DNA from: Stramonita haemastoma
Lineage: Eukaryota > Mollusca > Gastropoda > Neogastropoda > Muricidae
DNA: 64,000 nucleotides
Assembly (NCBI GenBank): GCA_030674155.1
Contig: CM060327.1
Span: 22,013,448-22,077,447 of the forward strand
Reading direction: 5' to 3'
Shown: piece after piece, positions 49,501-55,500 of the stretch
How positions within the stretch are numbered: the stretch's first letter is position 1
How the letters are laid out: every line of letters begins with the position of its first letter
Made by a program: the position numbers and the translations under genes
The notes under the pieces: model-generated
The model's input: the letters and a program-made list of their open reading frames with translations, nothing else
Told to the model about the DNA's origin: nothing
Databases searched by the model: none

Positions 49501-52500
49501 AAGTTTATTGTTGTCCATAAAGATGGATTGTGGCTGCTGCATTGAAGTCAGAAAATTTATAAAGCCAACCTCCAGTGAATTTTTAAGTGAAACTTTCCGT
49601 TTTCTCTGTGATGACACGATGACGAGTCAGAACCTCTGCAGGATGTCAGACCTGTTACAGTTCTTGTGACAGTGTTTGGTCATTGGCAGTGACCTCTGAA
49701 GACTTGAGGCATTTGTCTGAGAGAAAAACTACCACATTGTATCGCTGTATTGCATCGCTGGATTTCATTATCTTTGTTAAGATATGACATATCTGTGCCA
49801 CTGGTATATTATACCTCATTGGGTTTCAAATCTAGCACAATGCACTGTCTGGAGTGCATAACACTATAACAGCCATTAGGTCTGCCTGAAACTGGACTTC
49901 TTTGCCACCCATTCAAGCCTTAGATGGGTCAGGTTCTGATCTTTTGCCTGATTATTCTATAATATTAATATATAAACACAGATCCAGCATGCATCATTTA
50001 TTTGCTTTCACACATTTGGAACAATCCTCAGTAGATTTAAAAGTTCAAGTTTTCTAACACTATAGTAACAGGGATTACAAAACATGTAGTTTATGGGGGT
50101 ACACATGGTAGATATATGTTTTTAAAAAAAAAAGGGGGGGGGGGGAGGTTGCTGTACTATTAGTACTATTAATATAATGGCATTTTTGCTGGAGTGAGGA
50201 GCTCCATTTTTTTGCAGCAAAATCTGCATGCGACAATAAATGTTACAGAGACTGGAACCTAGAGAGTATAAAGAAAGGTAAGGTAAAGGTGTCCCATAAC
50301 CTTTGTCATGTGGTCATAGGGGAGTGAGGCATCAGAGACCTCAGCTTCTCTAGGGGCCAGCATATTGAGAGCAGCGCCCATCTTCTCTCCCTCACTGCTT
50401 TACCTTCTCTGACCCTAAAGAGGGCAGTTACCCATTCACAGCTGGGTGGACTGGGGGACTGTACTGAATCCAAGGTGCACAAAGGGTCACCCATCCATTG
50501 ATTTAGTAACCAGAAAGACTGAAAAGATTTTCTCTTTCAAGCCTAAGTCAGGTGTGCTGGGCATGACTTTTGACTAGTTACTAAGTTAGGCGCTTAACGG
50601 CAGCACAACACAGTTTCGCTCATGAATATGACAGGTAACAATATTTGTTGACAGCAGAATGCGGTGAAGAAGAAGACATTCAGGTGTAAACTTCTCACAC
50701 ATCTCAGTGATGACACGATGACGAGTCAGAACTACTGCAGAATGTCAGACCTGTTGCAGTTCTTGTGACGGTGTTTGGTCATTGGCAGTGACCTCTGAAG
50801 ACTTGAGGCATTTGTCTGAGAGATATATATATATTTCTTCATCTTAGACCATATGAATTGCTGTGCTAATGTTATGCTGTGAATATGACCATTCTTCCAA
50901 GAACAGTTTACAGATCATGCATGATTTTTTAAAAAGGAAAAAAAGTAGATCTATAGATCATACAAAATATTAGTCAAACTTAAAGCAGGACATGTGCTGA
51001 TGCCGTTGTGCCTTTATTAAGGGAAAAGATTTAAGATTTTGTCTGATTCTTTACAAATAGTGTGTGTATACATGCCTTGTATGTCTGTGGGTATGAAGAT
51101 GCTTAAAAACAAGATGTGTGTGCTTTTGATGTGTATGCATATCATGCATTTGTGCACAGACATGTGTTTGAGTGTTGAGGAATATTTTATACAGAAATAA
51201 CAATGGTCGTTCGATAAATTCATTTAAAATATTCTCTAAAAGATCAAAACTTTTTCAGCAGTGTACTGTAACTGTAAGAAACCATGGGTTCATTTGAAAA
51301 GTTCAGAATCTTTTTTTTGTCTTGCATGCTGCAATTTTATTTATTGCTAAGTATCATTCGGTTTTTTAAAAAAAATTTTTTTTAAATCTTTTTAGGGCAG
51401 AATCAGTGAAGTTCTTCATACGATACCAGTTAGCAGGTGTTTAGATGATGTGATAATAATTTTGTGCAATGTTGCATATCAAAATTTTTTACAAGTTTTT
51501 TTAGTTTATGTTCATTTCTGGTTTGTTTGAATAATATAAAGCTGAAGTGTTGACGGTAAACTTCTCCGTGATGACACGATGACGAGTCAGAACCACTGCT
51601 GGATGTCAGACCTGTTACAGTTCTTGTGACAGTGTGTGGTCATTGGCAGTGACCTCTGAAGACTTGAGGCATTTGTCTGAGAGAGGTCTAACTTTGGGGG
51701 TACAGTTTGTAATTAAACCTACCAATTTTGCCACAACAGTATCTCCCAGCTCTTTCCAATTTTCAATTGTTGTGGGTTCTTTTCACATGCATAAGTCAGT
51801 AAAGTGTAAGCACAGGGGTCTGGCATGTTTAGAGACTCCCCAGATATATGAGACATGGAATTTAATTTCAATGCTGAAGGTTGGTTTGCTGGACCTGACT
51901 AGTCCTGCACTTCATGGCAGCACAACAGATTTTCACCCATATGACAGACAACAATAGTTCTGTTAGTTGCTGCCCTAGCGTTTGACGAAGAAAAAGAAAG
52001 TTTAGCTTTCCCTTCAAATCGGGAAGAAAGGGTAAGGCTGGAAATTGATCCCAGGTCCTCACATTTTATATGTTAAGCAGGTGAAAGTCTCAACCATCCT
52101 GCTGCCTCTCTTCTTTGTAGAATTTTCAAAATCTGTTTTAGTATTCATGATCAATATTTCATCATTTCTGGTCTGTGTTCTGGTTTTGAGAAATTTTGCA
52201 AAGTTCTTTACACAATGGATACCAGGATGTAAGCTTCTTAAATTATATGTCCTGAACAGCTGATCAATTTTTAAGAAGTTTTCTAAGGTTTCTTTTTTGT
52301 GTGTGTTTGTTTCAAATTGTTTGTTTCTTTCTTTTGTCTTTGACTAGTACAGTAGTAGAATGCTTCAACGTTAAAGGTTAATTTCTCAGTGATGACACGA
52401 TGACGAGTCAGAACCACTGCAGGATGTCAGACCTGTTACAGTTCTTGTGACAGTGTGTGGTCATTGGCAGTGACCTCTGAAGACTTGAGGCATTTGTCTG

Positions 52501-55500
52501 AGAGTTAAATCAGTTATAAAGCTACTTCATTTTTTAACCATTCTACCACATAGTCAACAGACTATTTATTGCTATGGTCAATCTACCCATAAACTTTTTA
52601 CGGCAATTGAGGATGCTGCCAGACATTCTCTGGGGCTAATTTCAGGCTTGAACTCCTTAGCCTCTGCTTACTTTATAGTCACAAACACTATGCTTCAGGG
52701 AACCCCTAAAGATCCTGAACTACCTCAACTGCCTAGTTAGCCTCATAGACTGCTTATTGCAGGATTCAGTGGCCTCTGCTCTATAGTCACAGCTCTCGGG
52801 TCTCAGCTCCCAGCCAAAACATAGCATGTTGCCCCCCCCCCCCCCCCCCAACCTTTAAAACAATTTTTTTTTAAAAATTGAGCTGACATGCACATTTTGG
52901 ACAAGGTAACCATTTATATTAAAAAAGGGTTTGGGGGGAAAAAAAAACCAAAAAGAAAAAGAAAAAATATTTAGTTGCACAGTTTTAATCTGTCTGAGAG
53001 TTAGAAATGTTCAGAGACAGACCCAACCAAAATGACCTCTGTGGTTGATGAGGCTATAGACAAGATTGGATTGGATTTGGAGGGTGGTGTTTGTGCTTTC
53101 AAAATCTGTTTTAGTGCTCTGTCATTTCTTGGCCGTGTTCTGGTTCTGAAGAAATCTGTTAAGTTTTTTTATGCAATGAATACCAGAATGGAAGCTTTGT
53201 GAATTAATATATAATGAACCAAGATGCTGAATTATTGTTCATTATATTTCATGAAGTGTAACAATGTTGCATGTCAATTTTTCAGAAGTTTTCTTTTTTT
53301 TTTTCTTTTTTTTTAAGTGGTGACAGAAAAACTTTCACATTATTTTAAAAGGTAAACTTCTCAGTGATGACACGATGACGAGTCAGAACGACTGCAGGAT
53401 GTCAGACCTGTTACAGTTCTTGTGACAGTGTGTGGTCATTGGCAGTGACCTCTGAAGACTTGAGGCATTTGTCTGAGAGATATTTACTTCATATTTCAGC
53501 CATGTACCACACAGTGAGTTGATTATCCATTACTGTGGCTATTTTTTGGGGAAAAAAAGAATTAGCAGTAATAGTATCAATTCAATATCTAAAACTAAAA
53601 GCATGACACTTTTCCCAGCTGAATAAGCCTACTGTAAGAAAACAGATTTATTTAGACACTGAAAGATTAAACTCTGTCCCTGTTGGGATACGTTTTGAGT
53701 TTTTAAACTTTAAAAAAAAAAAAAAATCAATGCCGTTTGTTTTTATTTTGTTTGGGTTTTTTTTAATTTTTTTAATTTTTTTAATTTTTTTGAGGGGGGA
53801 GGGGTGTTTGTTTCAGGTTTCTGAATCTGTCTTAGTGTTCTGTCATTTCTACTCTGTGTTCTGCATTCTGATTCTGGAGTAATTAGTGAAGTTCAAATAC
53901 AATAGATACCACAATGTACCTTGCATTTAAAAAATAAATATATGTTGTAACTGAGATGCTAATTTTGTTGATTGTATGTCACAAACAGTGTTGCATATAA
54001 AATTAAGCTTTTCTATTCGTTTTGTTTTTTGGCTATGTTTCCTTTTCTTCATGATAGAAAGCTGGGATTGAGGCATTGATTAATTTAAAGGCAAACTTCT
54101 CAGTGATGACACGATGACGAGTCAGAACCACTGCAGGATGTCAGACCTGTTACAGTTCTTGTGACAGTGTGTGGTCATTGGCAGTGACCTCTGAAGACTT
54201 GAGGCATTTGTCTGAGAGAAAGTTAAAATTCAGCTATCGACTCTATCATAAGATCAGACAGTCTGACAGACATCTCATTCTTTTGTGCTTCCATGCAGTA
54301 TATTTACCTGGTTGTACACAACTAATGAACTTCAAACATCTGAAACCTGTCCAGTTTATTGTCAGTATGTAAAGTATCAGGTTGATAAGTTACATAACAT
54401 TTCAAGGTCTTCTGAATTTTGAATAAAATTCTGTTTCTAAATCAAATGAAAAGGTTTTATTTTTTGGTACTTGATATTCTCATATTGTTTTTGGCAGTAA
54501 GTGCATGTTTGACAAACCTGACTTGTTTTTAACTGGAGCATGGTAACGTAACTGATGCAGCATCAAGCGTGGTTACCAATTGGATGAGTGACTGCGTGCC
54601 TTGGCTTCAGCACAGTCCCCCAGTTCCACCAGCTGTAAATGGGTACCTGCCCTCTCTAGGGTCAGGGAAGGTAAAGCAGCGAGGGAGAGGAGATGGGCGG
54701 CACCCTCAACATGCTGGCCCCTAGAGAAGCTGAGGTCTCTGCACAACACCTCACTCTCCTACGACCACATTGCTTATGAGATACCTTTACCTTTTATGGT
54801 AACTGAAGCACAGTATTATTTTGTTTTTCAACCAAAGCGTGGTATTGTATTGTTTTTTTTACCAAAGCATGGTATTGTATTGTTTTTTACCCAAAGCATG
54901 GTATTATATGATGACTGTGTAGGTGATCTACATTGCCCGTAACCCCAAGGACACTGCGGTGTCCCTGCAGGCCTTTCTCAATCTGATCAACATGTCCACC
55001 TTCCGTGGAACCCTGGAGGAATTCGCCCAACTCTTTCTGGAAGGCATTGGTAGGTTTTGATGAGAAAATGAAACAAAACAGACTTATTATTATCATCATC
55101 ATCATCATCATCATCATCATCATCATTATTATTATTATTATTATGATTATGATGATTATGATTATGGTGTAAAGCACACTTGCTCATGTGATGCATGGTC
55201 TTGTTTGTTTTACGTATTACTACCACACTGGAGATGTAATACACACAAAGTCGCTCAGGATATAATGCATAAACTTGTACTCATTGTAGCCCTATTTCCA
55301 TGTCTTTCTGGATATCATTTTTTATATTATTTGAAAGACTAAGATGCTTGCAGAACTGTTTAAAGTAAATGTTATTGCAGCTTTCCAAATTGTGATCAGT
55401 TATGACACATGAACAAGGCTGCTTGCTGAAAAAAATCAAAAGCAGAGTTTGTACTTAGTAATTAAAAAAAATATTATCTATAGACAAAATTTAACTTGTA

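What the first reader, a model, noticed from the sequence alone, without database searches (positions are those of the whole stretch)
49608..54219. Six U15 (SNORD15) snoRNA copies in one intron of a sulfotransferase gene
Six 117-nt units, all on the same strand as the host, begin with box C GTGATGA and end with box D CTGA. They keep GATGACGAG and GAGGCATTTG, which pair with one continuous 28S segment CAAAUGCCUCGUCAUC. These elements match vertebrate U15 and the role of yeast snR13 as I remember them. In vertebrates U15 is in RPS3 introns. Here it is expanded and hosted by a metabolic enzyme gene, implying a change of host and a need for more dosage or redundancy.
Basis: partly seen in the sequence, partly recalled or inferred. 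Interest (0 to 1): 0.87.

Follow-up and report, generated by a model that had tools for sequence, protein, structure and literature searches.

The report
Six U15-type snoRNAs in one intron
One intron of a sea-snail sulfotransferase gene carries six nearly identical copies of an ancient small RNA that probably directs a chemical mark on the ribosome; the RNA is of a known kind, but six copies in a single animal intron is an unusual arrangement.

Summary
Six + strand copies, 113 nt from box C to box D (117 with four bases of 3' stem), lie in one 5,857-bp intron (49066-54922) of a sulfotransferase gene. All six match Rfam SNORD15/U15 (RF00067) at E = 7e-11 to 2e-9, yet score 53.6-59.4 bits, below the gathering cut-off of 75, so routine annotation misses them. 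Boxes and guides are invariant; 7 of 113 columns vary. Upstream flanks of copies 4-6 are homologous, in register and 21-25% diverged, which predicts 24-29 differences per RNA pair; 0-1 are seen. Copy 3 fits less firmly, copies 1-2 show no such homology. Selection, or conversion limited to the RNA, keeps the units. The D guide should direct 2'-O-methylation of the 28S A homologous to human A3764; the D' guide may direct a G seven bases downstream, as in plant U15. 'Change of host' is not shown: the own genome could not be searched, and a guide for this site outside RPS3 is already published. 'Need for more dosage' is untested. Verdict: real, probably functional, a new member of a known kind in an unusual arrangement. 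No expression or methylation data.

The parts
49066..54922 (+). host intron (between sulfotransferase exons 2 and 3), GT-AG, phase 0, 5857 bp
49608..49720 (+). U15-type snoRNA copy 1 (box C to box D)
   Evidence: RF00067 58.4 bits, E 1.3e-10
50707..50819 (+). U15-type snoRNA copy 2 (most divergent)
   Evidence: RF00067 58.0 bits, E 1.6e-10
51568..51680 (+). U15-type snoRNA copy 3
   Evidence: RF00067 59.4 bits, E 7.2e-11
52389..52501 (+). U15-type snoRNA copy 4 (identical to copy 6 over 113 nt)
   Evidence: RF00067 53.6 bits, E 2e-9
53364..53476 (+). U15-type snoRNA copy 5
   Evidence: RF00067 59.0 bits, E 8.9e-11
54103..54215 (+). U15-type snoRNA copy 6
   Evidence: RF00067 58.7 bits, E 1.1e-10
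52389..52395 (+). box C GTGATGA (copy 4 as example; same offset in all six)
52399..52407 (+). D' guide GATGACGAG (copy 4), followed by T and D'-like CAGA
52487..52496 (+). D guide GAGGCATTTG (copy 4), followed by T and box D CTGA
48854..49065 (+). host exon 2 (sulfotransferase)
54923..55049 (+). host exon 3 (sulfotransferase, VIYIARNPKDTAVS)
55816..55910 (+). host exon 4
56831..57002 (+). host exon 5
58685..58791 (+). host exon 6 with stop

Best explanation
These are six functional copies of a U15-type box C/D guide RNA that multiplied by tandem duplication inside one intron of a caenogastropod sulfotransferase gene. Each is expected to be carried in the host pre-mRNA, bound co-transcriptionally by the C/D proteins at the box C/D and terminal-stem motif, and released from the intron by exonucleases, probably helped by endonucleolytic cuts between copies. 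The D guide (GAGGCATTTG) should place 2'-O-methyl on the fourth base (A) of 28S CAAATGCCTCGTCATC, the homologue of human A3764. The D' guide (GATGACGAG) could place one on the G seven bases downstream. Shown here: sequence, homology, invariance of functional blocks, host gene and intron, and, for copies 4-6 firmly and copy 3 less so, old tandem duplication with the RNA kept. Inferred: transcription, processing, methylation, and any dosage effect of six copies.
For: RF00067 hits 6 of 6 copies, E 7.2e-11 to 2e-9, full model 1-146. Boxes, both guides and D'-like CAGA invariant; 7 of 113 columns vary, all at columns 27-69. Of the 5 variable columns that are paired in the RNAalifold structure, 3 keep a standard pair in all six copies and 2 are each broken in one copy. 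Guides pair with the LSU stretch printed in PMC12180492 (passage; pairing). D and D' fifth-base targets are an A and a G 7 nt apart, as for Arabidopsis U15 A2282 and G2289 (PMC8053127, passages). Human U15a target listed as Am3764 (PMC3511168, passages). Upstream flanks of copies 4, 5 and 6 align in register (offsets 1, -2, 0; 3 of 3 pairs) at 21.5-25.4% mismatch, 24-29 expected per 113 nt against 0-1 seen. Copy 3 aligns in register with copies 4 and 5 (offsets 6 and 4) at 24.1-29.5%, 27-33 expected against 1-2 seen. blastn also finds the 3-4, 4-5 and 5-6 spacers homologous just before copies 4, 5 and 6.
Against: All six scores are below Rfam's gathering cut-off. The D' box is CAGA, not CTGA, in all six. 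The species' own 28S and RPS3 were not seen. No RNA or methylation data. Flank evidence is partial: copies 1 and 2 align with nothing in register (0 of 9 pairs), copy 3 with copy 6 is out of register, 0 of 15 downstream pairs are in register within 10 nt, and the copy 3 scores (63, 66, 53) are all below the 95% point of 76 for unrelated segments near the gene, while two of the three exceed the 58 for the whole window; for copy 3 it is the register, not the score, that speaks. The first copy starts 542 nt after the 5' splice site and the last ends 707 nt before the 3' one, whereas vertebrate intronic C/D RNAs usually sit near the branch point (recalled). The unconstrained fold pairs the two guides with each other.
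Confidence: 0.88

Rival explanations
1. Only one or a few copies are functional; the rest are recent duplicates or are kept alike by gene conversion, so six copies mean nothing for dosage.
For: Copies 4 and 6 are identical over 113 nt. Gene conversion in snoRNA arrays is described (PMC11028025, passages).
Against: Upstream flanks of copies 4-6 are 21.5-25.4% diverged next to RNAs that differ by 0-1 of 113, so these copies are not recent; similarity drops at the RNA ends. Copy 2, the most divergent, still keeps every box and guide. Conversion limited to the RNA is not excluded.
Confidence: 0.25
2. The intron is really several introns of a longer or alternative transcript, with small unannotated exons between copies, so each snoRNA sits alone in its own intron as in GAS5-type host genes.
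For: Animal C/D RNAs predominantly follow one snoRNA per intron (PMC11028025, passages).
Against: Only two GT[AG]AGT donor-like sites occur in the intron, at 53514 and 54497; about 3 would be expected with equal base frequencies (my arithmetic). None lies between copies 1 and 5. Weaker donor forms were not scanned.
Confidence: 0.1
3. Each copy has its own promoter and is transcribed independently; the intron is only a location.
For: The flank homology of copies 3-6 is upstream, not downstream, which could include promoter elements; splicing-independent production of some intronic snoRNAs is known (PMC11028025, passages).
Against: That homology has decayed to 21-30% mismatch and copies 1 and 2 lack it. 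All six are in the host's orientation. No promoter scan was run, so this is weak evidence.
Confidence: 0.08
4. Chance repeats or a transposable element that merely resembles a snoRNA.
For: None beyond low-complexity surroundings and retroelement remains elsewhere in the window.
Against: RF00067 E <= 2e-9 in 6 of 6 copies. Beyond the six, blastn of copy 4 against the window finds only matches of 18 nt or less, and the generic C/D scan found nothing else.
Confidence: 0.01

Closest known systems
SNORD15 / U15 (Rfam RF00067), vertebrates
   Same: Box C/D RNA, guide stretches GAUGACGAGU and GAGGCAUUUGUCUGA identical to the Rfam consensus, same predicted 28S A. In chicken it is also multi-copy: 3 copies in RPS3 introns 4, 5, 6 (PMC2653536, passages).
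   Different: Shorter (123 bases matched to a 146-position model) with a different central arm, score below gathering cut-off, D' CAGA for CUGA, host a sulfotransferase instead of RPS3, six copies in one intron rather than in separate introns.
Arabidopsis U15
   Same: D and D' guides whose targets are an A and a G 7 nt apart (A2282, G2289; PMC8053127, passages).
   Different: Dual targeting here is only a prediction, with a degenerate D' box.
Yeast snR13
   Same: Listed beside U15 for the homologous LSU A (PMC3511168, passages).
   Different: Uses a D' guide and targets positions 5 and 6 (PMC8053127, passages); a single independently transcribed gene (recalled).
Single-intron snoRNA clusters (plants, Plasmodium) and mammalian SNORD115/116-type arrays
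   Same: Several snoRNAs in one intron (PMC2656528, passages) or tandemly repeated C/D copies (PMC11028025, passages).
   Different: Here one ancient rRNA guide is repeated six times within one protein-gene intron of an animal. As far as recalled, SNORD115/116 arrays have one copy per intron of a non-coding host and are not ancient rRNA guides.

Membership tests
Box C/D snoRNA | Box C (RUGAUGA) and box D (CUGA) with terminal stem | tested here: met
   GTGATGA and CTGA in 6 of 6; terminal stem of at least 4 bp in 5 of 6, copy 4 shorter
Box C/D snoRNA | Guide next to D or D' complementary to rRNA | tested here: met
   D guide 10 WC + 1 GU, D' guide 9 WC, against the LSU stretch from PMC12180492; own 28S not seen
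Box C/D snoRNA | Stable RNA bound by fibrillarin, Nop56/58, 15.5K | not testable with these tools
   needs RNA and protein data
U15 / SNORD15 | Significant match to the RF00067 covariance model over its full length | tested here: met
   6 of 6, E 7.2e-11 to 2e-9, model 1-146
U15 / SNORD15 | Rfam gathering score (curators' threshold for automatic listing; not itself a biological feature) | tested here: not met
   53.6-59.4 bits against 75, 0 of 6
U15 / SNORD15 | Both U15 guide elements, targeting the A of CAAAUGCC and complementary to adjoining LSU sequence | tested here: met
   with the LSU letters of PMC12180492
U15 / SNORD15 | Functional D' box | tested here: inconclusive
   CAGA instead of CUGA in 6 of 6
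U15 / SNORD15 | 2'-O-methylation of the homologue of 28S A3764 | not testable with these tools
   needs RiboMeth-seq
Vertebrate-style U15 host | Located in RPS3 introns | tested here: not met
   these six copies lie in a PF00685 sulfotransferase gene; whether RPS3 of this species also holds U15 did not complete

The most novel reading that the evidence does not exclude
The intron is released as one stable RNA of about 4.6 kb (49608-54215), protected at both ends by the outermost snoRNPs and carrying four more in between: a six-snoRNP sno-lncRNA that is either a storage or dosage device for an essential rRNA guide or has a function of its own. It would also mean that sulfotransferase transcription sets the level of an ancient, widely conserved ribosome mark in these snails.
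Probability: 0.1. Interest if true: 0.65.

Novelty: new member of a known kind. Interest (0 to 1): 0.36.

Why it matters
U15 is listed among guide RNAs traced to the last common ancestor of eukaryotes (table passage in PMC3511168). Four paper searches for it, or for snoRNAs, in molluscs or invertebrates gave no listing that describes its organisation in molluscs (titles and abstract starts seen, plus one passage of PMC5006418). A six-copy array in one animal intron is a test case for how snoRNAs depart from the one-per-intron pattern, how inner copies are processed, and how snoRNA hosts drift. It also shows that a molluscan U15 can fall under Rfam's cut-off.

Tried and rejected
Gathering-threshold Rfam scan: no snoRNA; the permissive scan resolves it, where hits of the same loci to plasmodium_snoR21, TtnuCD10, SNOR75 and SNORD10 (E 0.1 to 4.4) were set aside as weaker C/D look-alikes. 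Viral-contig scan for the two guides 60-90 nt apart: 0 matches, uninformative for animals. Own-genome search for U15: not completed (12 calls). Paper searches with mollusc, invertebrate, gastropod or mollusk (0 papers; 15: 2; 24: 10, of which 9 listed; 43: 3): nothing on molluscan U15 organisation in the listings. Internal exons: strict donor-like sites not above chance. Retroposition not favoured: in-register upstream homology of copies 3-6 points to segmental tandem duplication. Limits of that argument: copies 1 and 2 show no flank homology over 200 nt (41.9-47.7% upstream and 44.8-48.2% downstream for the 9 pairs that include copy 1 or 2; 40 random pairs from the first 40 kb: mean 42.3%, maximum 49.3%). 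One search also found matches out of register (57 nt at 75% between spacers 1-2 and 3-4; 22 nt between spacers 2-3 and 4-5). The shuffle control used base shuffles of the copy 4 and 5 flanks only and was too mild: unrelated 394-nt segments of the window reach 95% points of 76 and 58 and maxima of 211 and 561 (400 pairs each), probably through simple repeats. In those terms only pairs 4-5, 4-6 and 5-6 (147, 82, 170) pass both 95% points; register was therefore used as the second criterion.
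Full report
WHAT IS THERE. Six near-identical units lie on the + strand at 49608-49720, 50707-50819, 51568-51680, 52389-52501, 53364-53476 and 54103-54215 (read; repeat family D1). By the scan's count the terminal stem is at least 4 bp in 5 of 6; copy 4 has a shorter one.

CHANCE. A generic box C/D scan of all 64 kb on both strands gave 5 hits, all of them these units. The gathering-threshold Rfam scan of the window gave only a tRNA. The permissive scan of 48000-56000 gave RF00067 (SNORD15/U15) for 6 of 6 units over the whole model, 53.6-59.4 bits, E 7.2e-11 to 2e-9; the curated cut-off is 75 bits, so none passes it. 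Apart from weaker C/D-family matches to the same six units, the other families hit no better than E = 0.08. I treat the cut-off as a listing rule and the E-values as the homology evidence.

CONSERVATION. Of 113 columns 7 vary, all between columns 27 and 69, in the central arm; boxes C and D, the D'-like CAGA and both guides are invariant. Five variable columns are paired in the RNAalifold structure; three keep a standard pair in all six copies (counting G-U), two are broken in one copy each. RNA identity between copies is 94.7-100%; whole-flank identity over 200 nt is 42-59% against a mean of 42% and a maximum of 49% for 40 random pairs. blastn between spacers finds 70.6% identity over 153 positions and 67.2% over 250 positions just upstream of copies 4, 5 and 6.

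Local alignment of the 394 nt upstream of each copy puts pairs 4-5, 4-6 and 5-6 in register (offsets 1, -2, 0) with scores of 147, 82 and 170; 3-4 and 3-5 are also in register (6 and 4) but score only 63 and 66; 3-6 is out of register; none of the 9 pairs with copy 1 or 2 and none of the 15 downstream pairs is in register within 10 nt. Unrelated 394-nt segments have 95% points of 76 (near the gene) and 58 (whole window), so scores alone carry only copies 4-6. There the flanks differ at 21.5-25.4% of aligned positions, which would mean 24-29 differences in 113 nt; 0-1 are found. For copy 3 against 4 and 5 it is 24.1-29.5%, 27-33 expected, 1-2 found. So at least copies 4-6, and probably 3, are old tandem duplicates whose RNA unit was kept, by selection or by conversion limited to the RNA.

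GUIDES. Against the 84-nt rDNA sequence printed in PMC12180492 (passage), the D guide makes 10 Watson-Crick pairs plus one G-U, and the D' guide 9 Watson-Crick pairs, with overlapping adjoining targets. The fifth base upstream of box D lies opposite the fourth base (A) of CAAATGCCTCGTCATC, and the fifth upstream of the D'-like box opposite its eleventh (G), 7 nt apart (from the positions). Arabidopsis U15 is reported to target A2282 with D and G2289 with D', also 7 apart and too close to be bound at once (PMC8053127, passages). The human target is listed as Am3764 (PMC3511168, passages). The snail's own 28S was not seen; identity of this very conserved stretch is assumed.

HOST. Exons 2-6 (48854-49065, 54923-55049, 55816-55910, 56831-57002, 58685-58791) join in frame into a PF00685 sulfotransferase, E 3.4e-70. 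Of 307 proteins found (120 listed), the gastropod names are Nucella lapillus 79%, Littorina saxatilis 70%, Batillaria attramentaria 61%, two Haliotis 53-55% and two Biomphalaria glabrata records 51%; an unnamed one reaches 80%. The window is therefore from a caenogastropod, probably nearer to neogastropods (Nucella is in that order; Littorina is in Littorinimorpha). All six copies lie in the 5,857-bp phase-0 intron 49066-54922; the first starts 542 nt after the donor and the last ends 707 nt before the acceptor.

HOW IT PROBABLY WORKS. By homology each copy is bound by the C/D proteins in the host pre-mRNA and guides 2'-O-methylation of the 28S A, possibly also of the G. Release is the open part: exonucleases acting on a debranched intron would stop at the outermost snoRNPs, and when two snoRNAs share an intron this is known to give sno-lncRNAs (PMC11028025, passages). 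Inner copies need cuts between them, or the region may persist as one long RNA. Only two GT[AG]AGT sites lie in the intron, at 53514 and 54497, so hidden exons between copies are not supported, though weaker donors were not scanned.

Identity and host are supported. A change of host is not: the own genome could not be searched, and in chicken three copies sit in RPS3 introns 4-6 with a further guide for the same site in RFWD2 (PMC2653536, passages). Host mobility is a published general pattern (PMC3511168, passages), as is duplication of C/D RNAs within one host gene, there in different introns (PMC8178906, passages). In ascidians SNORD15 was reported lost by an automated ncRNA survey whose authors allow for artefacts (PMC5006418, one passage); the sub-threshold scores seen here are a reason for care with such losses.

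NOVELTY. A new member of a known kind, in an unusual arrangement. Clusters in one intron are described for plants and Plasmodium (PMC2656528, passages) and exist in animals under a predominant one-per-intron pattern (PMC11028025, passages). My searches gave no listing that describes molluscan U15, in a library limited to open-licence papers.

Noticed in passing
46564-46583 and 48842-48860: The exon 1 / exon 2 junction of the host gene is not a clean GT-AG: reading FPKAGTTW needs exon 1 to end GCAG before TAGGCC, or an intron ending in CA. It could be a one-base assembly error or a real defect at the cofactor-loop junction.
   Followed up: partly
45660-45732 (-): A tRNA-Val (anticodon TAC) lies just upstream of the host gene on the opposite strand.
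   Followed up: no
40442-43403 (-): Retroelement-like frames in separate pieces: 40724-41485 matches reverse transcriptase and RNase H domains; a CCHC-like stretch lies in 42784-43254, which has no Pfam match.
   Followed up: partly
60594-63960 (-): A 432-aa frame with internal repeats of a Cys-rich unit, followed by at least two further partial copies about 1.2 kb apart (by eye); no Pfam match for the longest.
   Followed up: partly
10566-10665: A run of exactly 100 N: an assembly gap.
   Followed up: no
each snoRNA copy, columns 6-24 and 88-110: The two guide regions can pair with each other in the unconstrained consensus fold, so the free RNA may hide its guides until the snoRNP forms.
   Followed up: partly
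upstream versus downstream flanks of copies 3-6: The decayed homology lies upstream of the copies only; no downstream pair aligns in register. Why the duplicated unit, or its retention, is one-sided is unexplained.
   Followed up: partly
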